Positions 11,398-24,762 of a stretch of DNA of 64,000 bases are shown one piece after another. The notes beneath the pieces are model-generated. The model was not told the origin of the DNA. It did no database searches and worked only from the letters and a program-made list of their open reading frames with translations. The stretch is from Providencia burhodogranariea DSM 19968 (GTDB lineage Bacteria > Pseudomonadota > Gammaproteobacteria > Enterobacterales > Enterobacteriaceae). The position numbers and the translations under genes were made by a program. Each line of letters begins with the position of its first letter. Position 1 is the first letter of the stretch. The stretch is taken from assembly GCF_000314855.2 (NCBI RefSeq), contig NZ_KB233223.1, positions 474,148-538,147 of the forward strand, written 5' to 3'.

Positions 11398-11805
11398 TTA
11401 ACTACCACGATAAGTTGAATATCCATATTGGCTTAATAATAGCGGGATATGATAATGTTCTTCTGTATTACTGATGTTGAATTCAACAGGAATTTCGGGA
11501 AAGAAACTATTTTGTTTATTATCTGAAAAATAGTTTCCTGTTTTAAATGTAACTCTATATTCTCCGATTTCAGTTTTTATATTATCTGGCCATAATTTTT
11601 TTATGCGACCATCTTTATCTGTTTTATCTGAATTTAAAACTTTCCAATTATTAGATTGCTTTTGTTCTAATGTGACTTTAACTCCTGGTGCTGGTTTTCC
11701 TGTCTGTTGATTAAGAATATGGACACTTAAAGTATCTGCAGCTTGGGCAAGCGCTGGCACAGTTATGGCAGATAAACAAATAGCTGATAATAAGTATTTT
11801 TTCAT
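11398..11805 (-). CDS. hiuH: Hydroxyisourate hydrolase, periplasmic transthyretin-related protein
   Basis: Hydrolyses 5-hydroxyisourate in urate breakdown. A signal peptide (about residues 1-22, ending LAQA) precedes the mature domain. The transthyretin-like features are [14 protein letters not shown] near the start, YRVTF and FFPEIPVEF in the middle, [16 protein letters not shown] near the end, and the terminal YRGS that is diagnostic for HIUase against true transthyretin. 135 aa, the usual size for exported enterobacterial forms. No uricase or OHCU decarboxylase gene is nearby. Confidence 0.92.
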
Positions 11806-12214: not shown

Positions 12215-12226
12215 TTGTATATACAA
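12215..12226. promoter_or_regulatory. Predicted HutC operator 1 (perfect palindrome)
   Basis: TTGTATATACAA is a perfect 12-bp palindrome matching the TGTATATACA-type operator of HutC repressors. It lies about 320 bp before hutU, and a HutC-family gene is at 22337-23053. Confidence 0.65.
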
Positions 12227-12546: not shown

Positions 12547-14214
12547 ATGTTAAATCGTACTGACTCTGCACGTGTTATCCGTGCACCGCACGGCAGTGAA
12601 GTAACGTGTAAAAGCTGGCTGACTGAAGCCGTGTACCGCATGATCCAAAATAACCTTGACCCGGATGTTGCTGAGCATCCACAGAGCTTAGTGGTATATG
12701 GTGGTATTGGTCGTGCAGCTCGTAACTGGGAATGCTATGACAAGATCTTAGATGTCTTAAAAACACTTGAAGATGATCAAACCTTGCTCGTGCAGTCAGG
12801 TAAACCGGTTGGTGTTTTCCCTACTCATCCAGATGCCCCTCGCGTATTAATTGCTAACTCAAATATTGTCCCACATTGGGCTAATTGGGATCATTTCAAC
12901 GAGTTAGATAAAAAAGGCCTGATGATGTACGGCCAAATGACGGCGGGGTCTTGGATTTATATTGGCTCGCAAGGGATTGTGCAAGGAACTTACGAGACGT
13001 TTATTTCTTTAGCAAAACAACACTTTAATGGCAATCCCGCGGGTCGTTGGATCTTAACGGGGGGTCTTGGTGGAATGGGGGGCGCACAGCCACTTGCAGC
13101 AACAATGGCTGGTTTTAGCATGATTGCAGTTGAGTGTGACGAAAGCCGTATCGATTTTCGCTTAAGAACAGGTTATGTCGATAAAAAAGCCACTTCGATT
13201 GATGAGGCTCTGCAATATCTTGAAGAAGCCAAAAGTAACGGAACGCCAGTTTCTGTTGGCTTACTTGGAAATGCCGCAGATATCTACAGTGAGCTGGTTA
13301 AACGTAACATTATCCCTGATTCAGTTACCGATCAAACCAGTGCGCACGATCCCATTCATGGATACCTGCCACAAGGTTGGACATTAAGCGAATGGCGTGA
13401 AAAACAGCAAAGTGCGCCTGCTGCAGTCACTAAAGCGGCTAAAAAGACTATGGCTGTTCAGGTTGAAGCCATGCTTGCTATGCAAAAGAAAGGTTCAGCA
13501 GCATTTGACTACGGTAATAACATTCGTCAAATGGCAAAAGATGAAGATGTTAGTAATGCCTTTGATTTTCCTGGATTTGTACCTGCTTATATCCGCCCTC
13601 TATTCTGTGAAGGGATCGGTCCATTTCGTTGGGTAGCACTCTCGGGTGATCCGGAAGATATTTATAAAACAGATCAAAAAGTCAAAGAGCTGATCCCTGA
13701 TGATAAGCACCTCCATAATTGGTTGGATATGGCCCGTGAGCGTATTGCATTCCAAGGTCTACCAGCACGTATCTGCTGGGTGGGATTGAAAGATCGCGAA
13801 AGATTAGGCCGTGCTTTTAATGAGATGGTGAAAACTGGCGAGCTAAAAGCGCCTATCGTGATCGGGCGTGATCACTTAGATTCAGGATCGGTAGCGAGCC
13901 CACATCGTGAAACAGAATCGATGAAAGATGGTTCAGATGCGGTTTCTGATTGGCCGTTACTGAATGCATTATTGAATACGGCAGGCGGCGCGACATGGGT
14001 CAGTTTGCATCATGGTGGTGGTGTTGGTATGGGCTTTTCGCAGCATGCAGGCGTTGTGATTGTATGTGATGGAACTGAGGCTGCGGATAAACGCTTAGCT
14101 CGCGTTTTACACAATGACCCAGCAACTGGGGTTATGCGCCATGCGGATGCTGGTTATGACATCGCAATTAACTGTGCAAAACAGCAGGGCCTTAATTTGC
14201 CTATGGTGAAGTAG
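12547..14214 (+). CDS. hutU: Urocanate hydratase
   Basis: Converts urocanate to 4-imidazolone-5-propionate using tightly bound NAD as electrophile; second step of histidine breakdown. 555 aa, full length. The NAD-binding loop [29 protein letters not shown], and RICWVGLK with Cys410 (the same number as the active-site Cys of the Pseudomonas enzyme) are present. [14 protein letters not shown] and [17 protein letters not shown] also match the family. hutH, hutI and hutG are not next to it; instead a CoA-transferase and an acyl-CoA dehydrogenase follow. HutC-like boxes upstream point to induction by urocanate. Confidence 0.97.
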
Positions 14215-14228
14215 CGTCTTTTCCGGCC

Positions 14229-14319
14229 TAGGGGCTATTGACCTTTAAAGGTCAGTTCTTATTCGAATTAACAGTCTTTACTTAAGCTAAAAATAAGCAG
14301 CGAAGGCCAACAGCCCCTA
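14229..14319. repeat. MITE-like element between hutU and the CoA-transferase gene
   Basis: 91-bp element bounded by 17-bp inverted repeats (TAGGGGCTATTGACCTT at 14229-14245; inverted copy with two changes at 14303-14319). An inner palindrome ACCTTTAAAGGT lies at 14240-14251. The left part resembles the start of the repeat at 23169. It could form a long hairpin in the hutU transcript and reduce read-through. Confidence 0.6.
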
Positions 14320-14362
14320 ATAAATAGATCGATTTATTTTAGTCATTCATAAGGACACGGAT

Positions 14363-15547
14363 ATGAATACTGTGCCAATTCAAAAAAGACAAGGCGTGCT
14401 GGCTGGGATCAAAGTAATTGATTTAAGCCGAGTACTCGCAGGCCCCTATTGTACAGGAATGATGGCTGACCTTGGTGCGGAAGTGATCAAAATCGAAGCG
14501 CCTGATCATGGCGATGATAGTCGTCATCTAGGTCCGTTTATTGATGGTGAGAGTGTTTATTATGGGCTCATCAACAGAGGAAAGCGCAGTATTGAACTAG
14601 ATCTAAAGTCAGATGCCGATCGCGCTATTCTTTATCAATTAGTAAAGGAGAGCGATGTTGTTGTTGAAAATTTTCGACCGGGTGTCACTGCAAGGCTTGG
14701 CATTGATTTTGAAAGCTTAAAACAACATAACTCTCAACTCATTTATGCCAGTATTTCAGGTTTTGGGCAGAACAGTCCTCTAGCCAATTACCCGGCCTAT
14801 GACATTGTTGCACAAGCAATGTCAGGTCTAATGAGTGTTACTGGATTTGAACAAACAGGGCCAACTCGTTGTGGTGAATCGATTGGTGATGTGTGTGCGG
14901 GCCTGTTTGCGGCATGGGCGATTAGCAGTGCGTTGTTTGCAAGAGAATATCGCCAAGAGAGTGCACAATATATTGATGTGGCAATGGTTGATGTTTTACT
15001 CAGTATGCAATTAACCGGGCTTTCCAATTTATTTGCGAATGACAAAGCGCCCAGCTTAGTGGGTAATCGTCATCCAGTTTCGACACCATTTGATACTTAT
15101 CAGGCGAAAGATGGATTGGTTGTAATAGCGATTGCAAGTGAAAAACTATTCCAACGTTTTTGTGAATGTATCGAGCAGCCGACACTTCGTGATGATCCTC
15201 GCTATAAAGATGACCCGACACGAACCTGCTATCAAGCTGAGCTTAGAACGGAAATCGAGCAATGGACATCACACAAAACAGTTGAAGAAGTTTGTGATCT
15301 ATTGTTAAACGCAGGTGTTCCTGCTTCACCGATTCATAACCTACAACAGGCAACACAGAGTGAGAATGCGAAAGTTCGTCAAGTTCTCACATACCTCGAT
15401 GATGGTGGTACACCATTAGTTTCTCAGCCTGTTTTTTTTAATGGACTAAAACCTCATGTTACGCAAAGAGCGCCTAACTTGGGTGAAGCGAATGGTATTT
15501 ATAAACCGGCAATAAAAACAACTAAAAGCGCGGAGACAATACAATGA
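14363..15547 (+). CDS. Class III CoA-transferase (CaiB/BaiF family)
   Basis: Moves CoA between carboxylic acids. The family N-terminus GIKVIDLSRVLAGPYC (about 15-30), MADLGAEVIKIEAP and VENFRPGVTARLGID are clear. The catalytic Asp is Asp147 in YPAYDIVAQAM, equivalent to the nucleophilic Asp of formyl-CoA transferase. 394 aa, normal length. Its 3' end overlaps the acyl-CoA dehydrogenase gene by 4 nt, so the two act together. From the neighbouring hutU I infer that it exchanges CoA between urocanoyl-CoA and imidazole propionate. The family also includes carnitine/butyrobetaine transferases (CaiB), so the substrate is not proven. Confidence 0.9.
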   Translation: MNTVPIQKRQGVLAGIKVIDLSRVLAGPYCTGMMADLGAEVIKIEAPDHGDDSRHLGPFIDGESVYYGLINRGKRSIELDLKSDADRAILYQLVKESDVVVENFRPGVTARLGIDFESLKQHNSQLIYASISGFGQNSPLANYPAYDIVAQAMSGLMSVTGFEQTGPTRCGESIGDVCAGLFAAWAISSALFAREYRQESAQYIDVAMVDVLLSMQLTGLSNLFANDKAPSLVGNRHPVSTPFDTYQAKDGLVVIAIASEKLFQRFCECIEQPTLRDDPRYKDDPTRTCYQAELRTEIEQWTSHKTVEEVCDLLLNAGVPASPIHNLQQATQSENAKVRQVLTYLDDGGTPLVSQPVFFNGLKPHVTQRAPNLGEANGIYKPAIKTTKSAETIQ

Positions 15548-16683
15548 GTTTTCAAATAGATGAAACAGAACAGGCAATTGTAGATGCTGTTGAAAAAGTG
15601 TGCCGAGATATTCTGCAAGCGAATGCACAACGTTATGATGAAACCGAAACTTTTTGTGCAGAAAGTTTGAGTGCGCTAGGTGAAATGGGCTGCTGGGGAA
15701 TTAACTTACCTGAGCAATATGGTGGATTTGGTATTAGTAGTATAGCCATGAGTATGATTGTTGAAGCTATAGCTGCTGCCTGTGCATCGACATCATCTGC
15801 GTTAACGGCCCACTTTCTCGCAACAGACTCTATTTTTATTGGTGGAACAGAAGAACAAAAACAGCATTGGTTACCCAAAGCAGCAGGTGGTGAAATGCTT
15901 GGCGCATTTGGCTTAACAGAGCCAGCTGCGGGTTCAAATCCAGCAGATATGCGCACGATTGCCACGCGTGAAAAAGAGGGATGGCGAATTCGAGGTAATA
16001 AGCATTATATTACTAACGCTAAAGAGGCTGATTTCATTGTGTTATATGCTAAAACAGCCCCTGAAGCTGGTGCTCGAGGTATCAGTGCCTTCATGATCCC
16101 TAAAGGAACTGAAGGAGTTGAATTTTCTTCACCAGAAAAAACCATGGGGTTACGCGGTAGTACGATTTATGAATTAGCACTAAATTGTTGGTTGCCAGAA
16201 TCGGCATTACTTGGCGAAGAAAATAAAGGCTTTCATACCGCGATGGAAGTGCTGGATAAAGGGCGTGTGGAAGTTGCTGCAAGCTCATTAGGCATTGCTC
16301 GTGCGGCGATGGAAAGTGCTTTGGTTTGGGTGAAAGAACGTCAAATAGGTAAAAAGCCATTAGCCGCTTATCAAGGTACTCAATGGCGTATTGCGGATAT
16401 GCATACTCAGCTAGAGGCTGCTCGTTTGCTGACTTGGCATGCAGCAGAACGCCGTGATTCGGGTGAACGTTTTAGTTTGCAATCAGCAACGGCTAAATTA
16501 TTTGCTGCGGAATGTGCAGGCTTTGTCACAGATGCTGCATTACAGCTTCATGGCGGCTATGGTTATATTCGAGATCTACCCCTAGAACGTTATGTACGTG
16601 ATGCAAGAATTTTACGAATTTTTGAAGGTACTTCGGAAATTCAAAAGATCATTATCTCACGCGCGGTCTTAGATGCCGTTTAA
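15544..16683 (+). CDS. Acyl-CoA dehydrogenase
   Basis: FAD enzyme making an alpha-beta double bond in an acyl-CoA. 379 aa with the full domain set: GINLPEQYGGFG; FGLTEPAAGSNPADM (FAD/substrate loop); HYITNAKEADFIV; RVEVAASSLGIARAA; and the C-terminal DARILRIFEGTSEIQ, where Glu361 fits the catalytic base of short/medium-chain enzymes. It overlaps the CoA-transferase gene by 4 nt (ATGA). The ETF and ETF-QO genes downstream are its expected electron acceptors. Inferred substrate: imidazole-propionyl-CoA, giving urocanoyl-CoA. A reductase working in reverse, like crotonobetainyl-CoA reductase CaiA, is the alternative. Confidence 0.9.
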   Translation: MSFQIDETEQAIVDAVEKVCRDILQANAQRYDETETFCAESLSALGEMGCWGINLPEQYGGFGISSIAMSMIVEAIAAACASTSSALTAHFLATDSIFIGGTEEQKQHWLPKAAGGEMLGAFGLTEPAAGSNPADMRTIATREKEGWRIRGNKHYITNAKEADFIVLYAKTAPEAGARGISAFMIPKGTEGVEFSSPEKTMGLRGSTIYELALNCWLPESALLGEENKGFHTAMEVLDKGRVEVAASSLGIARAAMESALVWVKERQIGKKPLAAYQGTQWRIADMHTQLEAARLLTWHAAERRDSGERFSLQSATAKLFAAECAGFVTDAALQLHGGYGYIRDLPLERYVRDARILRIFEGTSEIQKIIISRAVLDAV

Positions 16684-17083
16684 TAGTGAGATAAGACAGT
16701 ATAGGTAGACGGACAGGCGTCTACTCAACATGAGTAAAAACTGCAATAAAATTAACGGCCTGACAACAGGATCATGGAATTAAAAACACAACAACAATCA
16801 GGTTTAAGAATGTATTTCAATTTTTAATGACGGGCACTTTATACACCAATAAAACTTCGAATAACCTGTAGAGAACTTACAACGAAATCCTGAGATATAT
16901 CAATATATAGCTTAGGTAACCAATAGCGGCGTTGTATTCACTATACAGATTATATAACTGAAGTATGTCGGTAATAATAGCTAAAATAGAGCCCGACTTA
17001 GCGTCTGATGGCTGTACCTTACAGCAACCATGATGACAAATTGGTCCATTCTTTAAGCCAGCCTTGCTTAAAGAGGAGTTACC
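16684..17083 (+). promoter_or_regulatory. Intergenic region before the NCS1 permease gene
   Basis: 400 bp without a gene. A 7-bp-stem hairpin GTAGACG/CGTCTAC (16705-16724) follows the dehydrogenase stop by about 22 nt but has no T-run. The region probably holds a separate promoter for the permease gene; no confident -35/-10 pair was picked by eye. Confidence 0.4.
17051..17078 (+). promoter_or_regulatory. Hairpin abutting the RBS of the NCS1 gene
   Basis: Arms CTTTAAGC (17051-17058) and GCTTAAAG (17066-17073) form a perfect 8-bp stem with a 7-nt loop. The right arm runs into the strong RBS AGAGGAG (17072-17078), 5 nt before the ATG. It could modulate ribosome access. Confidence 0.5.
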
Positions 17084-18526
17084 ATGACAGTTTCAAACGA
17101 AATAATCGCAGATAAAAAAAATCGGCAGGAGAATGTTCCATTAATAGAAGCACGTTCCATTGACTATATCCCAGAGTCTGAACGACACGGCACCTTAGCA
17201 AGTCAATTTACACTTTGGTTTGGTGCCAATTTACAGATCACCGCTATTGTAACTGGAGCACTTGCCGTCGTACTTGGTGGTGATGTGTTTTGGTCTCTAA
17301 TTGGTTTATTTATCGGCCAGTTATTGGGGGGAGCTGTGATGGCATTGCATGCGGTACAAGGGCCAAAACTAGGTTTACCTCAAATGATATCTAGCCGAGT
17401 TCAGTTTGGTGTATATGGTGCGGTTATCCCGATTCTTTTAGTATGTATGATGTACGTGGGTTTCTCTGCAAGTGGAACGGTACTCGCGGGCCAGGCTGTT
17501 GGGCAGTTGCTTCATGTCAGTGATTGGATTGGTATTTTAATATTTGGTGCTGTCATTATTGCGATCACTATCTGTGGTTATCGTATTATTCATATTTTAG
17601 GTAAAGTCGCTAGCGTTGTCGGAGTTATTGCTTTCTTTTATCTTTTCTTCCGACTGTTTTATATGAATGATGTGTCGGTTTTGTTAGAAAATCGTCATTT
17701 CAGCTGGACTAACTTTTTATTAGCAATGTCATTATCTGCATCTTGGCAAATTGCATTTGGTCCTTATGTTGCTGACTATTCACGTTATTTACCGACTAAA
17801 ACGCCAACAATCAAAGCGTTCTTAGCCGTGGGTTCAGGCACTGTAATTGGTACTCAAGCATCAATGATCCTTGGTGTATTTGCAGCGGCACTCGCTGGAA
17901 GTAAATTTGCTGGTAATGAAGTCTCTTATATTGTTGGGCTTGGTAGTACAGGCCTTATTGCTGCATTACTCTATATCAGTATTTTCTTTGGTAAAGTCAC
18001 GATTACAGCATTGAATGCGTATGGCAGCTTTATGTCGATGGCTGCGATATTCTGTGGTTTTCGTGGTAAGCATCATATCTCTAGTGGGCAACGGTTATTC
18101 TTTATTATTTTTATGGTGAGTTTTTCGACCATTTTAGGCTTAGCTGGGCAACATTCATTCCTAAAACTGTTTTCAGCTTTCTTGCTGTTCTTATTAGCTT
18201 TCTTTACACCTTGGAGTGCTATCAACTTAGTTGATTACTATTGGGTCACTAAAGGCCGCTATGACGTACCTCAGTTATCTAACCCCAACGGGCGTTATGG
18301 CCGCTGGAATAAAGTTGGCATCATCACTTACATTGTGGGTGTGGTGATTCAATTACCGTTTATTGCGACAGGTTTTTATACTGGGCCTTTTGTTGAAATG
18401 TTAGGTGGGGTTGATATTTCATGGATAGTAGGATTAGTTGCGACGAGCATTATCTATTATGCTGCAATTAAAAAATGGCCAATGTCTGTCGCGGATAGGC
18501 TGATATTACCATCGTCTAATCCATAA
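17084..18526 (+). CDS. NCS1-family permease (purine/cytosine permease type)
   Basis: 480-aa inner-membrane transporter with about twelve hydrophobic helices. The N-terminal tail with ARSIDYIPESERHG followed by FTLWFGANLQITAIVTGA is typical of nucleobase:cation symporter-1 proteins, as are GPKLGLPQMISSRVQFG and WQIAFGPYVADYSRYLP. It lies between the hutU/CoA-transferase/dehydrogenase genes and etfBA. NCS1 carriers take up small nitrogen heterocycles, so an imidazole compound such as urocanate or imidazole propionate is a reasonable inferred substrate; cytosine or purines cannot be excluded. Confidence 0.88.
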   Translation: MTVSNEIIADKKNRQENVPLIEARSIDYIPESERHGTLASQFTLWFGANLQITAIVTGALAVVLGGDVFWSLIGLFIGQLLGGAVMALHAVQGPKLGLPQMISSRVQFGVYGAVIPILLVCMMYVGFSASGTVLAGQAVGQLLHVSDWIGILIFGAVIIAITICGYRIIHILGKVASVVGVIAFFYLFFRLFYMNDVSVLLENRHFSWTNFLLAMSLSASWQIAFGPYVADYSRYLPTKTPTIKAFLAVGSGTVIGTQASMILGVFAAALAGSKFAGNEVSYIVGLGSTGLIAALLYISIFFGKVTITALNAYGSFMSMAAIFCGFRGKHHISSGQRLFFIIFMVSFSTILGLAGQHSFLKLFSAFLLFLLAFFTPWSAINLVDYYWVTKGRYDVPQLSNPNGRYGRWNKVGIITYIVGVVIQLPFIATGFYTGPFVEMLGGVDISWIVGLVATSIIYYAAIKKWPMSVADRLILPSSNP

Positions 18527-18634
18527 AATTCACTTCAAATAATATGTGTAAAAATAAATTTAAAATAAAAATAATTAGGGCTGATATACACAAAGTAATT
18601 TGAATTATATCTAGATGTTCCACAACGCTATCCG

Positions 18635-18646
18635 ATGAATATACAA
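18635..18646. promoter_or_regulatory. Weak HutC-like box upstream of etfB
   Basis: ATGAATATACAA matches 10 of 12 positions of the palindrome at 12215. It lies about 140 bp before the etfB ATG and may put the ETF genes under the same repressor. Confidence 0.3.
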
Positions 18647-18784
18647 GAGTATGTAAGTCGGATAGCTGAAAGAACGGAATACAGAAACTATTTTAAATAT
18701 GGCAATTATAGCAGTGAATAATTCACCGCTAGGTCTTTTCTCAGCCTAAAAATACGGTCTGGTAGAGATTAATTAGGAGTGATT

Positions 18785-19540
18785 ATGAAAATTTTAGTGG
18801 CTGTTAAACGGGTTATCGATCATAACGTTAAAGTTCGTGTGAAAGCAGATGGCTCTGGTGTCGAACTAGCGAATGTTAAAATGGCAATTAATCCCTTTGA
18901 TGAAATTGCTGTTGAAGAAGCTGTGCGTTTAAAAGAATCAGGTAAGGCAAGTGAAGTTGTTGTCGTTTCAATTGGCGATATTAGCTCACAAGAAACATTA
19001 CGCAGTGCAATGGCAATTGGTGCCGATCGCGCTGTTTTGGTTCAAATACCGATTGATATGATTTTAGAACCCCTTGATATTGCACGTTTATTACAAAAAA
19101 TAGTGTTTGCAGAGCAACCTGATTTAATTTTACTTGGTAAGCAGGCAATTGATAATGACTGTAACCAAACCGGGCAAATGTTATCAGCATTACTAAAATG
19201 CAGTCAGGCAACCTTTGCTTCTTTAATTGAAATAGAAGGCTCTGCGTTACTGGTCACTCGTGAAATTGATGGCGGATTAGAAACGCTTTCTTTACCTTTA
19301 CCTGCGGTTGTCACAACAGATTTACGCTTGAATGAACCTCGCTATGCAACTCTTCCTAATATTATGAAAGCTAAGAAAAAGCCTCTTGAAATACACGATA
19401 TTTCACAGATGAGTTTCTCACCGTTAGGGCAAGTAAAAATATTGACGGTGAGTGAACCAAAGAAACGGACAGGCCAATGCACACTATTTAATGATGCGAA
19501 TGCATTAGTCAGTGAGCTACAAGCGAAAGAAGCGATCTAA
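18785..19540 (+). CDS. etfB: Electron transfer flavoprotein beta subunit
   Basis: Small subunit of the FAD/AMP-containing ETF that collects electrons from acyl-CoA dehydrogenases. The ATG at 18785 is preferred over the in-frame GTG at 18779 because AGGAG lies 5 nt before it and [20 protein letters not shown] matches canonical EtfB (in part [12 protein letters not shown]). Other marks: [34 protein letters not shown] (AMP binding) and [20 protein letters not shown], holding the dehydrogenase recognition loop. It belongs to the respiratory type rather than the bifurcating type by resemblance. Followed by etfA after 15 nt. Confidence 0.93.
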
Positions 19541-19555
19541 TTAGGGAGAATTATC

Positions 19556-20506
19556 ATGAACCAGTTATCAGTATTAGTTGTGGTAGAACACGACAATCAA
19601 ACTATCAAATCTTCAACCTATCACAGTGTGACCGCGGCGAAGCAAATGCTAGCAGGTCAAGGCTATCTACATTTATTAGTCGCTGGTCATCAGTGTGAAA
19701 AAATAGCGGAACTTGCAGCAAAAATAGGGGGCGCTGAAAAAGTTATCCTCATTGATAGCAGCGAACTTAGCCATCAACTCGCAGAATCAATGACAGATGC
19801 AATAGTGTCCATAGCCAAGGATTATAGCCATTTAATTTTCCCCGCAACGACATTTGGTAAAAACATCGCGCCACGGGTAGCCGCGACACTAGGTATCGCT
19901 CAAATTTCTGATATTACAGAAGTGATTGATGCACAAACTTTTATCCGTCCAATTTATGCAGGTAATGCGCTCGCTACAGTACAGAATAATGGCCATCAGG
20001 TTGTATTGACAATACGTAGTTCGGCATTTTTAGCTGCCGTAGATACACCAGATATTGTCGCAATTGAAAAACATTCAGTTAGTGGTCTGAACCAATTAGC
20101 TCAACTCAAAAGCCAGTCATTAACTCAAGTCAGTCGTGCTGAGTTAAGTTCGGCAAAAATTGTAATATCGGGTGGTCGAGGGCTAAGTTCTGGGGAAAAT
20201 TTCGCACTGTTAGAATCAATCGCAGACAAGCTAGGTGCAGCTATTGGGGCTTCAAGAGCCGCAGTTGATGCCGGCTATGTACCGAATGACTACCAAGTTG
20301 GGCAGACGGGTAAAATTATCGCACCCGATCTATACATCGCAGTGGGGATCTCAGGCGCTATCCAACATATTGCCGGAATGAAAGAAAGCAAAGTGATAGT
20401 TGCAATCAATAGTGATCCGGATGCACCTATTTTCCAAATCGCGGATTATGGCATCGTTGGCGATCTGTTTGAGATCTTACCTGAATTCGATAAAGCGCTG
20501 GCATAA
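19556..20506 (+). CDS. etfA: Electron transfer flavoprotein alpha subunit
   Basis: FAD-binding subunit of ETF, 316 aa. The C-terminal FAD domain shows [39 protein letters not shown] (in part [15 protein letters not shown]) and [18 protein letters not shown] with [15 protein letters not shown]. The RBS AGGGAGA precedes the ATG. It sits between etfB and the ETF-QO gene with short gaps, a single transcription unit. Confidence 0.94.
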
Positions 20507-20517
20507 GGGAGTTGATC

Positions 20518-22200
20518 ATGACTATCGACAATAGTGTCAATATAAATGGGGCTCCCGAGCGGGAATCGATGGAATTTGATGTCCTGATTGTCGGTGGTGG
20601 GCCAGCAGGGCTATCAGCAGCTATACGCTTAAAGCAACTTGCGTTAGAAACAAAGACCGAACTGTCTGTCTGTTTGATAGATAAAGGCGCAGAAATTGGT
20701 GCTCATATTTTGTCGGGTGCCGTTATTGATCCTCGCGCGCTTGATGAATTATTACCGAATTGGCAACAAATTGTCTCTAACCAATTAACCCAAGTGACAG
20801 AAGATAGTTTTCTATGGTTAAAACCGCATAAAGCTAGTCGGTTGCCATTAGCATTGTTACCTGCAAGTTTAAAAAATAGTGGCAATTTGATTGGTAGTCT
20901 TGGGCAAGTTTGCTCGGCATTAGCGATAGAAGCAGAGCAACTAGGTATTGATGTATTTGCTGGATTTGCTGCGACAGAGATTCTGTATGATCAATCAGGT
21001 TCTGTTATAGGCGTTACAACGGGTGATATGGGGCTTGATAAATCAGGTAACCCAACGTCGATTTACCAAGCGGGTATGAATTTACTGGCAAAAATGACGC
21101 TATTTGCTGAAGGTTGTCGTGGGCAATTAGGTAAACAGTTAATTGAGCAATTTGATTTATCTGCTAATTGCGGTAAACAAACTTATGGCCTTGGTTTAAA
21201 GGAAATTTGGCAGATCCCAAAAGAGCAACATCAACCTGGATTAGTTGTCCATTCTATTGGTTGGCCCTTAGATAATGATACCTATGGCGGTGGTTTCGCT
21301 TACCATTATGGCAATAATCTCGTTGCTGTCGGTTTAGTCGTCGGGCTTAATTATGAGAATCCTTATTTATCACCATTTGATGAATTTCAACGCCTTAAAA
21401 CACATCCTTCATTTAGTACTTTTTTAAGTGGCGGTGAGCGGGTGAGTTATGGTGCTAGAACGCTTGTTGCTGGCGGATTAGCTGCATTGCCTGAACTTAG
21501 TTTCCCCGGTGGGGCTCTGATTGGTGATGATGCGGGTTTTTTGAATGCAGCTCGTATTAAAGGTAGTCACTGTGCGATGAAAAGTGGAATGCTTGCTGCT
21601 GAAGCTTTTTTTGACTCCATCACTAATGAAAATATTGATGATGCTAAGTTTAAGCTTCAATATCAGCAAAAATTTGAACAAAGCTGGCTTTATGATGAAC
21701 TATACCAAACACGAAATTTTAAGCCTTATATGAAAAAAGGCCTATATTTTGGTTCGTTATTATTTGGCGCTGAACAATTTTTGTTAAAAGGCCGCACTCC
21801 GTGGACACTGAAATTAAAACAATCCGACCATGAAGTATTAAAAGAGGCTAAAAATTTTCAACCGATTAAATATCCAAAACCAGATGGTATTTTGACATTT
21901 GATAAGCCTTCTTCTGTCTTTCTATCAAACACTAACCATGCAGAAGAGCAGCCTTGCCATCTACAATTACGGGATAAACATATCCCTATTAATGTGAATT
22001 TATCTAAGTATGCTGCACCCGAAATTCGTTATTGTCCTGCTGGTGTTTATGAAATAGTCGGTGAAAAAGAGCAAGAAAAATTACAGATCAACGCGCAAAA
22101 CTGTTTGCATTGTAAAGCCTGTGACATTAAAGATCCGACACAAAACATCAGATGGACGGCTCCACAGGGTGGTGAAGGTCCTATTTATCAAGGGATGTGA
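20518..22200 (+). CDS. Electron transfer flavoprotein-ubiquinone oxidoreductase
   Basis: Membrane-associated FAD and 4Fe-4S enzyme that reoxidises ETF and reduces ubiquinone. The ATG at 20518 (after GGGAG) is preferred to an upstream TTG. The FAD site FDVLIVGGGPAGLSAAIRL is near residues 19-37; SGAVIDPRALDELLPNW follows; the central GDDAGFLNAARIKGSHCAMKSG (in part) and a C-terminal ferredoxin-like domain with CPAGVY and NCLHCKACDIKDPTQNIRW give the four cluster cysteines. 560 aa, the one-piece ETF-QO rather than separate FixC and FixX. This favours electron flow from a substrate into the quinone pool. Confidence 0.95.
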   Translation: MTIDNSVNINGAPERESMEFDVLIVGGGPAGLSAAIRLKQLALETKTELSVCLIDKGAEIGAHILSGAVIDPRALDELLPNWQQIVSNQLTQVTEDSFLWLKPHKASRLPLALLPASLKNSGNLIGSLGQVCSALAIEAEQLGIDVFAGFAATEILYDQSGSVIGVTTGDMGLDKSGNPTSIYQAGMNLLAKMTLFAEGCRGQLGKQLIEQFDLSANCGKQTYGLGLKEIWQIPKEQHQPGLVVHSIGWPLDNDTYGGGFAYHYGNNLVAVGLVVGLNYENPYLSPFDEFQRLKTHPSFSTFLSGGERVSYGARTLVAGGLAALPELSFPGGALIGDDAGFLNAARIKGSHCAMKSGMLAAEAFFDSITNENIDDAKFKLQYQQKFEQSWLYDELYQTRNFKPYMKKGLYFGSLLFGAEQFLLKGRTPWTLKLKQSDHEVLKEAKNFQPIKYPKPDGILTFDKPSSVFLSNTNHAEEQPCHLQLRDKHIPINVNLSKYAAPEIRYCPAGVYEIVGEKEQEKLQINAQNCLHCKACDIKDPTQNIRWTAPQGGEGPIYQGM

Positions 22201-22278: not shown

Positions 22279-22301
22279 GGGGCAGAATTGCCCCTTTTTT
22301 T
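22279..22301 (+). terminator. Intrinsic terminator after the ETF-QO gene
   Basis: GGGGCA (22279-22284), loop GAAT, TGCCCC (22289-22294), then seven T. A classic terminator placed between the convergent ETF-QO and hutC-like genes. Confidence 0.9.
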
Positions 22302-22336: not shown

Positions 22337-23053
22337 TCACGAATTATCTATGCGAGAATGCAGTTTTAATTTGTAACGAGACCCCGCAGTTACCATATTG
22401 ACATAACTGATCAAAGTTGTACCAGTCCAAGTACGACGGCTAAGCTGTAAACAAGGAGATCCTTCTTTAATTGACAGTGATTGAGCTATGACTTTGGTCG
22501 ATAAGGCTACTTCTATCATGTGTTCCATTTCACTAACAGGAAAATGCCGTTGTAAATAGCCACTGGGTGTTTCAGTATCACCAAATTGCTGCTTAACAAA
22601 ATCAGGCACAATAGCATGATTTACATAGCGTTCTTCAAGCATTAATGGAATATCATTTTCAAAGTGTAATACTTTGCAATAGCCAATATCGCTACCTTCC
22701 ATGACATCAAGCTGTAATGCAATTTCTGCTGAAGCTGCTATTACTTTTAGTTGTAATTGATGACCACTATATTTATTACCACTCAATGATATCTCATCGA
22801 AAATATCAAAAGCTTTGGTAACAGGAAGTTCATGCTTTAGCGAGGCTACAAATGTTCCTTTGCCTGCTTTACGGCTAAGAATACCTTTTTGACTGAGCTC
22901 AGAAATAGCTTTATTGACTGTCATTCGGCTTACATTAAATTGAGCGCATAGCTCTAGTTCTGTTGGTATTTGTGTTTCAGGTTTAAAAATACCTAAATCA
23001 ATACTGCGCAAAATATAAGATTGAATTTGTTTGTATGCCGGTTGTGAGGTCAT
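22337..23053 (-). CDS. hutC: GntR/HutC-family transcriptional repressor (UTRA domain)
   Basis: 238-aa regulator. The N-terminal winged helix has PTELELCAQFNVSRMTVNKAISELSQKG and GKGTFVAS, and the C-terminal UTRA ligand domain has HFENDIPLMLEERYVNH, PSGYLQRHFPVSEMEH and CLQLSRRTWTG. The UTRA stretch closely resembles Pseudomonas HutC, whose inducer is urocanate. It is convergent with the ETF-QO gene and so ends the hutU-type cluster; TGTATATACA boxes lie upstream of hutU. Inferred role: urocanate-relieved repression of the cluster. The symbol rests on family resemblance. Confidence 0.85.
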   Translation of the reverse strand: MTSQPAYKQIQSYILRSIDLGIFKPETQIPTELELCAQFNVSRMTVNKAISELSQKGILSRKAGKGTFVASLKHELPVTKAFDIFDEISLSGNKYSGHQLQLKVIAASAEIALQLDVMEGSDIGYCKVLHFENDIPLMLEERYVNHAIVPDFVKQQFGDTETPSGYLQRHFPVSEMEHMIEVALSTKVIAQSLSIKEGSPCLQLSRRTWTGTTLISYVNMVTAGSRYKLKLHSRIDNS

Positions 23054-23475: not shown

Positions 23476-24762
23476 TTATGTTTTTTTAGGCAGTAGGAAT
23501 ACCGCTAATGCAGCAATAATTGCGACAATGGAAAAAGCAATAAAGTTCCAACTACTCGCAATACCAAGGCTAGCAATATATGCACCAAACATTGGTCCTG
23601 ACATTGCGCCTATACGTGAGAAGCTTAGCGCCCAACCCGTAGCAGAAGCTCGTACATTGGCTGGATAGTAATTTGCAATATAGCCCGTGAGTATTAGAGC
23701 TGCTGAAATACTACCAACACCAGCAAATGCGACTAATAGATAATTTACAAAGATATTTTGCTTAAATACCAGCGCACCAACACCAATCGCACCGAGTAAA
23801 AAGAAGAATGAAACTGAACCTCTGACACCATATTTATCTGCAATTTTTCCTAAGAATAACCCACCTAGTGCAGAAGCTAAACTAAATACAATTAGGAAAG
23901 TAAGGCTCGAACCTAAATTATAACCTTCTTTACGCATAATAGAAGGTAGCCAAGTATTTAATCCATAAACAAGCAGCATGCCACAGAATAAAGCAACCCA
24001 AAAACAAGTCGTTGCTCGCAAGTGCTTCCATGCGAAGACAACGGATACAATATCTTTGAGGCTTTGTTTTGGTTGTTCTTGTTTAGTTGGAGCTTGATAA
24101 TTCATATCGAGTTTTTGTGCGAGATCTTTAGCTTGAGAGTGTAATCCTTTATTTGAAAGGTATTCTAAGGACTCAGGTAAAATACGAGCCATTGGCCAAA
24201 TGAGTAATAATGGTAGAGCGCCAAATGCAATGACACTACGCCAACCAAATTGCTCCAATAACCAAATAGCAACTAATGCAGCACTGAGGATACCAAGAGA
24301 ATAACCTGAATACATAATACCGTAATTAAAAGAGCGTTTTTCAGGTGGTGAATATTCGATTGTTAATGCTGCGGCTACAGGAATTACGCCGCCTAATCCG
24401 ATTCCACCAATAAAACGCATTATTCCAAAAACCCAAGGTGTTGGTGCAAGTGCTGCACCTAGCATCGTTAATGAAAACAGAGTCACACACAGAAGTAACA
24501 TGAGACGCCGACCATAAAGTTCACTTAACGTACCAATAATAAAAGCACCAAAAAACATACCCACTAGCGCATAGCTACTTAATGCGCCAAGTTCTAAAGG
24601 TGAAAGATCCCATTGCCTGTATTCTGCTAGTGTTGGTAATACTGCTCCCATCACACCAACATCATAGCCTTCAAATAAAATACTCATCCAGCAAATCAGT
24701 AAAACTTTAAACGTCGTTCTTTTGGAGCCGAATGTTGTAACCGCAGGTGCTTGTAATGTCAT
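23476..24762 (-). CDS. MFS transporter, aromatic acid:H+ symporter (AAHS) type
   Basis: 428 aa with about twelve membrane helices. The AAHS motif EGYDVGVMGAVLPTL is in helix 1, the MFS loop GTLSELYGRR lies between helices 2 and 3, and GGIGLGGVIPVAAALTIEYSPPEKR follows. The central cytoplasmic loop and second half (KIADKYGVRG) are intact. AAHS members import aromatic or heteroaromatic carboxylates such as benzoate, 4-hydroxybenzoate or phenylpropionates. Beside the hutU cluster it could import imidazole propionate; being divergent from tnaA it could instead belong to aromatic amino acid metabolism. It is not a TnaB-type tryptophan permease. Confidence 0.85.
   Translation of the reverse strand: MTLQAPAVTTFGSKRTTFKVLLICWMSILFEGYDVGVMGAVLPTLAEYRQWDLSPLELGALSSYALVGMFFGAFIIGTLSELYGRRLMLLLCVTLFSLTMLGAALAPTPWVFGIMRFIGGIGLGGVIPVAAALTIEYSPPEKRSFNYGIMYSGYSLGILSAALVAIWLLEQFGWRSVIAFGALPLLLIWPMARILPESLEYLSNKGLHSQAKDLAQKLDMNYQAPTKQEQPKQSLKDIVSVVFAWKHLRATTCFWVALFCGMLLVYGLNTWLPSIMRKEGYNLGSSLTFLIVFSLASALGGLFLGKIADKYGVRGSVSFFFLLGAIGVGALVFKQNIFVNYLLVAFAGVGSISAALILTGYIANYYPANVRASATGWALSFSRIGAMSGPMFGAYIASLGIASSWNFIAFSIVAIIAALAVFLLPKKT

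What the first reader, a model, noticed from the sequence alone, without database searches (positions are those of the whole stretch)
12547..22200. Candidate CoA-dependent imidazole propionate (dihydrourocanate) oxidation cluster built around hutU
Seen: hutU, a class III CoA-transferase, an acyl-CoA dehydrogenase, an NCS1 permease, etfB, etfA and a one-piece ETF-QO, all on one strand, ended by a terminator and a HutC-family gene. There is no enoyl-CoA hydratase, thiolase or CoA ligase, and no hutH/I/G. Known: class III CoA-transferases exchange CoA between acids, acyl-CoA dehydrogenases pass electrons to ETF, ETF-QO reduces ubiquinone, and HutU acts on free urocanate. Inference: imidazole propionate takes CoA from urocanoyl-CoA; the dehydrogenase forms new urocanoyl-CoA; the exchange frees urocanate, which HutU hydrates. 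This would explain why the only hydratase is HutU and why no ligase is needed. The layout parallels caiB-caiA with fixABCX, so a reductive urocanate-respiring direction is the main alternative, but ETF-QO favours oxidation. Imidazole propionate is a gut bacterial histidine product of medical interest.
Basis: partly seen in the sequence, partly recalled or inferred. Interest (0 to 1): 0.92.

Follow-up and report, generated by a model that had tools for sequence, protein, structure and literature searches.

The report
Imidazole propionate recycling gene cluster
These genes look like a bacterial route that turns imidazole propionate, a gut product linked to type 2 diabetes, back into urocanate so it can be eaten through the normal histidine pathway; gene neighbourhoods in other bacteria agree, but the chemistry has not been tested.

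Summary
The window has hutU, a family III CoA-transferase (CoAT), an acyl-CoA dehydrogenase (ACAD), an NCS1 permease, etfB, etfA and a one-piece ETF-QO, then a terminator and a convergent hutC. One correction: the genome also has a canonical hut locus (hutI-hutC-hutU-hutH) and a hutG, so this hutU and hutC are second copies.

I read 35 loci outside the genus with a close ACAD relative; all carry CoAT next door, and 25 lie beside hut genes (21 counting hut enzymes only), several inside complete hut operons. None of 77 loci of more distant ACADs meets the same criterion.

The oxidative direction is favoured: EtfB is nearest to respiratory ETFs, and in this genus ETF-QO occurs only with the cluster; the one member without the cluster lacks it.

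Best reading: imidazole propionate becomes its CoA ester, then urocanoyl-CoA, then free urocanate, with electrons going to ubiquinone. Substrate, CoA donor and exchange step remain inferred. ACAD residue 243 is acidic in 43 of 43 relatives and 0 of 78 others: a candidate imidazole contact.

The parts
12215..12226 (+). predicted HutC operator TTGTATATACAA, 332 bp upstream of hutU2
   Evidence: the only exact match in the window; TGTA-N2-TACA at -325 to -334 in 14 of 16 other genus loci; consensus from PMC12977541 passages
12547..14214 (+). hutU2, second urocanate hydratase
   Evidence: TIGR01228 974.5 bits against 375; 75% identical to HutU1, separate group with support 100/100
14363..15547 (+). 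class III CoA-transferase (CoAT)
   Evidence: PF02515 400.2 bits; below the curated cut-offs of the 7 equivalog/subfamily models it matched; Asp176 invariant in 44 of 44 sequences that cover it
15544..16683 (+). acyl-CoA dehydrogenase (ACAD) with acidic residue 243
   Evidence: AlphaFold2 pLDDT 95.0, TM 0.97 to rat SCAD 1jqi
17084..18526 (+). NCS1 permease, proposed imidazole propionate/urocanate importer
   Evidence: PF02133; directly after ACAD also in L068, L172 and L185-L192
18779..19540 (+). etfB, respiratory-type ETF beta
   Evidence: PF01012; nearest solved chain 1efp 2.4e-82
19556..20506 (+). etfA, ETF alpha
   Evidence: PF01012 and PF00766
20512..22200 (+). one-piece ETF-ubiquinone oxidoreductase
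   Evidence: PF21162 and PF05187; nearest solved chain 2gmh 4.8e-191
22279..22294 (+). intrinsic-terminator-like hairpin followed by a T run
22337..23053 (-). hutC2, second HutC-family repressor
   Evidence: TIGR02018 234.8 against 220

Best explanation
The cluster is a feeder branch of histidine catabolism that oxidises imidazole propionate (dihydrourocanate) to urocanate. Proposed steps: (1) the NCS1 permease imports imidazole propionate; (2) CoAT puts CoA on it; (3) ACAD, using Glu361 as base, makes urocanoyl-CoA and passes electrons to EtfBA, then ETF-QO, then ubiquinone; (4) CoAT moves the CoA from urocanoyl-CoA to the next imidazole propionate, releasing urocanate, so no ligase, thioesterase or enoyl-CoA hydratase is needed after priming; (5) HutU2 hydrates urocanate and HutI/HutG, encoded elsewhere in the genome, finish the route; (6) HutC2 or HutC1 controls the cluster from the TTGTATATACAA site. 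Shown by sequence comparison: families, linkage, electron-carrier type, operator match and its conservation. Inferred: substrate, import, CoA donor, exchange and regulation.
For: Linkage: CoAT-ACAD lies inside hutI-hutH-hutG-CoAT-ACAD-hutU in Paracoccus aminophilus and P. alcaliphilus and Roseovarius, and inside hut operons in L167, L168, L193, L194 and L195; hutC-hutU-CoAT-ACAD-NCS1 in L172; in that genus 9 of 25 genomes have the ACAD and 9 of 9 have hutU-CoAT-ACAD-NCS1 (hutU cut by the contig end in L187 and L191), three of them (L185, L186, L189) with hutH, hutI and hutG. Even sample of 398 genomes: 7 outside the genus have the ACAD at E<=1e-105, 5 of 7 hut-linked. Control: none of 77 loci of more distant ACADs meets the hut criterion. 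Tree of 107 ACADs: a group of 29, SH-aLRT 100, holds all 21 rows labelled hut-linked. Direction: EtfB nearest 1efp 2.4e-82 and human 1efv 1.2e-74, against bifurcating CarD 6.5e-27; ETF-QO nearest pig 2gmh 4.8e-191 against FixC 3.3e-18. A private ETF-QO: 23 of 24 genus genomes have one (in pieces in G010), none in the cluster-less G020, 0 of 12 other genomes of the family; 18 of 18 genomes whose CoAT-ACAD has no neighbouring ETF genes have one elsewhere. Operator. Residue 243 acidic in 43 of 43 against 0 of 78.
Against: No enzyme was assayed. 10 of 35 relatives outside the genus have no hut gene in the stretch held, most of them LysR-CoAT-ACAD, and the single outside hit in the class sample of 369 genomes (L056) is one of the ten, so some members may act on another acid. 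HutC proximity alone carries 4 of the 25. The best NCBIfam profiles for ACAD, EtfB and EtfA are the acryloyl-CoA reductase subunits of a reductive system, all well below cut-off (384.8 of 640, 114.8 of 475, 171.7 of 600). CoAT fits no curated equivalog, and in a CoAT tree the gamma and alpha sets form two supported groups that do not join as one; the window CoAT is a little closer by identity to a lyase-linked Rhizobium CoAT (52.7%) than to the Paracoccus ones (48-50%). ETF-QO is common in aerobic proteobacteria (recalled), so 18 of 18 is weak alone. The gaps of 400 and 252 bp leave co-transcription open. Two of 16 other genus loci lack the operator pattern, and only 5 of 18 outside loci scanned have it anywhere.
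Confidence: 0.7

Rival explanations
1. Reductive direction: urocanate is converted to urocanoyl-CoA and reduced by ACAD to imidazolepropionyl-CoA, so urocanate serves as an electron acceptor, by analogy with caiB-caiA and fixABCX.
For: ACAD chemistry is reversible (recalled); the best curated profiles of ACAD, EtfB and EtfA are the acryloyl-CoA reductase subunits, though all below cut-off; the layout resembles caiB-caiA (reader); the host belongs to Enterobacterales, many of which are facultative anaerobes (kinship with Sodalis; the rest recalled).
Against: EtfB is nearest to respiratory ETFs and far from bifurcating CarD; ETF-QO is of the one-piece mitochondrial type, not FixCX; CoAT-ACAD sits in full urocanate-degrading operons of Rhodobacterales, where reduction would compete with HutU; ubiquinol is a poor donor for such a couple (recalled).
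Confidence: 0.1
2. Same chemistry, other substrate: a related azole or aryl propionate (for example N-methyl-imidazole propionate) rather than imidazole propionate.
For: 10 of 35 relatives are not hut-linked; two loci carry a VanA-type Rieske demethylase, a HisC-like transaminase and a GlcD-like oxidase beside CoAT-ACAD; HutU2 is a distinct lineage.
Against: HutU2 scores 974.5 bits as ordinary urocanase and below the cut-offs for thiourocanate and S-methyl-thiourocanate hydratases; in Paracoccus and the genus of G476 CoAT-ACAD sits with ordinary hut enzymes.
Confidence: 0.15
3. Oxidation as proposed, but CoA comes from succinyl-CoA or acetyl-CoA at every turn and urocanoyl-CoA is hydrolysed by a housekeeping thioesterase, instead of a CoA exchange cycle.
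For: CoAT resembles oxalate, succinate-glutarate and mesaconate CoA-transferases (290-337 bits, below cut-offs; nearest solved YfdE), which use such donors (recalled).
Against: No thioesterase or ligase is annotated in the P. aminophilus, P. alcaliphilus and Thioclava hut loci; an exchange cycle needs none.
Confidence: 0.35

Closest known systems
Hut pathway (HutH-HutU-HutI-HutG/F, HutC regulation)
   Same: HutU and HutC equivalogs; TGTA-N2-TACA operator; CoAT-ACAD embedded in hut operons elsewhere
   Different: adds a CoA-dependent dehydrogenation step upstream of urocanate and, here, its own ETF and ETF-QO
CaiB-CaiA with FixABCX (carnitine/crotonobetaine; recalled)
   Same: class III CoA-transferase plus ACAD working on a CoA-ester couple
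   Different: no crotonase; respiratory one-piece ETF-QO and respiratory ETF instead of FixABCX; proposed opposite direction
Urocanate reductase UrdA
   Same: interconverts urocanate and imidazole propionate (PMC10882135, abstract start in the listing)
   Different: UrdA is a flavin enzyme reducing free urocanate with no CoA; not an ACAD (recalled)
Lyase-CoAT-HCDH-ECH loci of Sodalis praecaptivus and Rhizobium sp. BT04
   Same: CoAT 50-53% identical, next to a HutH-like lyase; UTRA regulators in Rhizobium
   Different: no ACAD annotated; enoyl-CoA hydratase and 3-hydroxyacyl-CoA dehydrogenase instead, plus an ABC importer

Membership tests
urocanate hydratase HutU | TIGR01228 equivalog cut-off | tested here: met
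   974.5 bits against 375; thiourocanate types 693.6 against 930 and 714.3 against 880 not met
HutC repressor | TIGR02018 equivalog cut-off | tested here: met
   234.8 against 220; the narrower PRK14999 172.3 against 424 not met
CoA-transferase family III | PF02515 domain and conserved Asp | tested here: met
   400.2 bits; Asp176 in 44 of 44 that cover it; that this Asp is the catalytic one is recalled
known CoA-transferase equivalogs (oxalate, succinate-glutarate, mesaconate, carnitine) | curated cut-offs | tested here: not met
   336.7 against 522; 291.8 against 750; 290.4 against 700; 125.3 against 413
acyl-CoA dehydrogenase | N, M and C domains and catalytic Glu | tested here: met
   Glu361 in 42 of 42 rows that reach it and in 78 of 78 others; fold TM 0.97 to 1jqi
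known ACAD equivalogs (acryloyl-CoA reductase, CaiA and others) | curated cut-offs | tested here: not met
   AcrC 384.8 against 640; crotonobetainyl-CoA dehydrogenase PRK03354 167.2 against 540
CaiBA-FixABCX type system | two-piece FixC/FixX and FixAB | tested here: not met
   one-piece ETF-QO, nearest 2gmh not 7koe FixC; EtfB nearest 1efp
imidazole propionate oxidation pathway | activity on imidazole propionate | not testable with these tools
   needs enzyme assays or mutants

The most novel reading that the evidence does not exclude
A widespread but undescribed CoA-dependent branch of the Hut pathway lets aerobic and facultative proteobacteria, including an enterobacterial genus with a complete kit (own urocanase, permease, ETF, ETF-QO and HutC), consume imidazole propionate. 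An acidic residue in helix 229-265 of the ACAD (Glu243) reads the imidazole ring, and CoA circulates between substrate and product so the step costs no ATP.
Probability: 0.55. Interest if true: 0.87.

Novelty: new variant of a known kind. Interest (0 to 1): 0.78.

Why it matters
Imidazole propionate is a microbial histidine product linked to impaired glucose control (abstract starts in the listings), and the work seen here concerns its production. None of my ten paper searches (listings only, most capped at 10 to 20 rows) showed a paper on bacterial genes that remove it; 'urocanoyl-CoA' and four degradation phrases gave no paper, in a library that lacks most subscription journals. If true, this gives testable genes for imidazole propionate consumption, a marker (CoAT next to an ACAD with acidic residue 243) for finding consumers in gut metagenomes, and a case where a gene cluster brings the electron carriers its family lacks.

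Tried and rejected
Considered and dropped: thiourocanate or S-methyl-thiourocanate as the HutU2 substrate (below cut-off); a bifurcating ETF; HutU2 as a recent copy of HutU1 (75% identity, separate group; best match listed in the plasmid collection Aeromonas caviae 82.9%); naming the genome through plasmid DNA (only Acinetobacter matches over 4% of the query). The genus is probably Providencia, but that is recalled and no call shows it. The 1973 work of Coote and Hassall on imidazolylpropionate use by Pseudomonas testosteroni is recalled and was not seen. Pocket geometry around residue 243 could not be measured because no coordinate file is in the Python box; that helices 81-100 and 229-265 line the acyl pocket is recalled from MCAD and SCAD.

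Coverage and dropped rows: of the 20 listed ACAD plasmid hits (H4-H23; 2002 more not listed) 11 were opened; one of them (L067) is outside the group. The search cut-offs (E 1e-90 to 1e-105) were my choice. 14 of the 35 outside loci (L185-L198) were found after the ACAD tree and are counted by those cut-offs and by their residues, not by the tree. One control locus, L121, has a HutH-like gene at 38.6% over 347 aa, below my criterion; only 38 of 77 control loci hold 20 kb or more. 'Hut-linked' means HutU/H/I/G/F above 45% identity or HutC at 38% or more in the stretch held; L058 fails this and was added for its RefSeq hutC annotation. An earlier CoAT count was spoilt by trimming and was redone; the residue counts showed only the four commonest letters and were recounted in full.
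Full report
Observation. The set is conserved in order in this window and 15 other genomes of the genus read in full; CoAT is intact in 22 of 24 genus genomes, broken in G010 and missing in G020. G010 is broken elsewhere too (hutU2, hutH, hutI), so its case says little. The host lies in the same family as G027, which is Sodalis praecaptivus by plasmid length and coordinates, hence Enterobacterales.

Correction. The genome is not without hutH, hutI or hutG. A canonical locus (hutI, hutC1, hutU1, hutH, a permease) lies on contig C1 (L010), and a formimidoylglutamase passes TIGR01227 (300.9 against 229.15). The window's hutU is a second, distinct urocanase lineage (75% identical) and its hutC a second repressor. 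So urocanate made here can be finished by enzymes encoded elsewhere.

Linkage elsewhere. Close relatives of the ACAD outside the genus were found on plasmids, in named genomes, in even samples of class and phylum, in the genus of G476 and in the family of G580. I read 35 such loci. All 35 have a CoAT next to the ACAD. 25 are hut-linked (24 by similarity, L058 by its RefSeq hutC); 21 have hut enzymes, 4 only a HutC-type regulator (L058, L062, L063, L068). Ten are not hut-linked: L056, L057, L059, L061, L066, L170, L173, L196, L197 and L198. By sample: class, 369 genomes, one outside hit (L056), not hut-linked; phylum, 398 genomes, 7 outside hits, 5 hut-linked; family of G580, 8 of 248 genomes, 5 in hut operons and 3 beside a LysR gene only, two of the 8 already in the phylum sample; genus of G476, 9 of 25, 9 of 9 as hutU-CoAT-ACAD-NCS1, hutU being cut by the contig end in L187 and L191. 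L185, L186 and L189 carry hutH, hutI and hutG around it. Named examples: Paracoccus aminophilus and P. alcaliphilus, hutC-hutF // hutI-hutH-hutG-CoAT-ACAD-hutU; Thioclava nitratireducens (hutG and a hutU in two open frames found by similarity); Roseovarius litorisediminis; Pseudomonas bubulae, hutC-CoAT-ACAD-NCS1; a Comamonas MAG with NCS1, hutC and hutH near LysR-CoAT-ACAD.

Control and trees. Of 77 ACAD loci outside the group (1.24 Mb in all, 38 of them 20 kb or longer) none meets the hut criterion. In a tree of 107 ACADs, 29 rows (8 of this genus, 21 outside) form a group with SH-aLRT 100 that holds all 21 rows labelled hut-linked and 8 that are CoAT-linked only (quick method, no bootstrap). 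L185-L198 were added later and are not in it. A CoAT tree of 54 rows gives two supported groups, one of this genus with the Pseudomonas-type loci (18 rows, 100/100) and one of the alpha-type and LysR-type loci (24 rows, 100/99), which do not join as one; long branches make their relation to the lyase-linked CoATs unsure. So one origin of the CoAT-ACAD pair is not shown.

Direction. EtfB's nearest solved chains are Paracoccus denitrificans and human ETF (2.4e-82, 1.2e-74); the bifurcating CarD comes at 6.5e-27. ETF-QO is nearest to the pig enzyme (4.8e-191) and far from FixC (3.3e-18). Against this, the best NCBIfam profiles of ACAD, EtfB and EtfA are acryloyl-CoA reductase subunits, all below cut-off. 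The Fer4_ETF_QO domain occurs in 23 of 24 genus genomes (in two pieces in G010), not in the cluster-less G020, and in 0 of 12 other genomes of the family, of which five are small genomes of 0.5 to 2.0 Mb. The 18 genomes checked whose CoAT-ACAD has no neighbouring ETF genes all have exactly one ETF-QO elsewhere. The simplest reading is that the cluster brings ETF and ETF-QO where the chromosome lacks them.

Regulation. HutC binds TGTA-N2-TACA in Pseudomonas (PMC12977541, passages). TTGTATATACAA at 12215-12226 is the only exact match in the window, and the pattern recurs at -325 to -334 in 14 of 16 other genus loci, upstream of hutI and hutU1 in L010, and upstream of the cluster in L068 and L172. 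With two mismatches allowed the motif is no commoner than chance (9 found, 6.3 expected), and only 5 of 18 outside loci scanned have it anywhere, so the weight rests on position and conservation in the genus.

Enzyme details. CoAT Asp176 is invariant in 44 of 44 sequences that cover it, two from outside the group included. ACAD Glu361 is kept in 42 of 42 rows that reach it. Position 243 is acidic in 43 of 43 rows (41 E, 2 D; 8 rows of this genus, 35 outside) and in none of 78 others (69 G, 6 S, 1 T, 1 A, 1 N). Ser85 and Gly100 are likewise 43 of 43 against 0 of 78. The AlphaFold2 model (47-sequence alignment, pLDDT 95.0) is an ordinary ACAD fold, TM 0.97 to rat SCAD; residue 243 lies in helix 229-265 and residues 85 and 88 in helix 81-100. 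That these helices line the acyl pocket is recalled; no distance was measured.

Mechanism. The minimal pair CoAT-ACAD beside hut genes, with no ligase, thioesterase or enoyl-CoA hydratase annotated in the Paracoccus and Thioclava loci, fits CoA exchange between product and substrate. This remains inference: other acyl-CoA donors are possible, and the substrate was not tested.

Sister system. Close CoAT relatives outside the group (Rhizobium sp. BT04 52.7%, Sodalis praecaptivus 49.7%) sit in betaine-type ABC transporter, HutH-like lyase, CoAT, HCDH, ECH loci, where the lyase product, an aryl-acrylate by family, would be the CoA acceptor. This fits CoATs that handle azole acrylates, but it is inference.

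Literature. No paper seen in the ten searches describes bacterial genes for imidazole propionate oxidation (listings). PMC13320830 (passages) treats histidine competition and imidazole propionate production. PMC11872695 (passages) has one 'degrad' passage, on insulin receptor substrates. PMC11633122 (passages) leaves the substrate of a Pseudomonas aeruginosa NCS1 transporter, PA5099, unidentified; whether it is related to the NCS1 here was not tested.

Verdict. A conserved, probably oxidative CoA-linked branch of urocanate catabolism, most likely for imidazole propionate; the enzyme families are known, and the combination and role appear new.

Noticed in passing
L014:4282-12068 (Sodalis praecaptivus pHS1, also L202) and L201:2874-10866 (Rhizobium sp. 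BT04): Shared set: ABC transporter (betaine type by my reading), HutH-like lyase (the Sodalis copy lacks the Ala-Ser-Gly motif), CoA-transferase, 3-hydroxyacyl-CoA dehydrogenase, enoyl-CoA hydratase; perhaps a CoA-dependent side-chain oxidation of a trimethylated histidine such as ergothioneine or hercynine (inference).
   Followed up: partly
L059:2875-10131 (Gemmobacter fulvus) and L058:8989-16152 (Mesorhizobium sp. AR02): VanA-type Rieske demethylase, reductase, HisC-like aminotransferase and GlcD-like oxidase beside CoAT-ACAD; looks like salvage of N-methyl-imidazole or imidazole-lactate compounds (families tested on the Gemmobacter copies; Mesorhizobium by similarity).
   Followed up: partly
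L057, L061, L066, L170, L173, L196-L198: LysR-CoAT-ACAD trios without hut genes nearby; the same trio lies beside hut genes in L169, L171 and L070.
   Followed up: partly
window 23476-24762: MFS transporter matching the aromatic acid/H+ symport model below its cut-off, upstream of hutC2; seen in only some genus loci (L011, L023, L029), though others may be cut short by the stretch fetched.
   Followed up: no
window 11398-11805: Small transthyretin/HIUase-family protein (PF00576) with an apparent signal peptide, between the liv-type transporter genes and hutU2.
   Followed up: no
L017 (genome G010): Cluster genes in pieces with stop codons, as are hutH and hutI of the same genome: a decaying or poorly sequenced genome.
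   Followed up: no
window 14215-14362: Intergenic inverted repeats between hutU2 and CoAT (TAGGGGCT...AGCCCCTA around TTGACCTTTAAAGGTCAG), function unknown.
   Followed up: no
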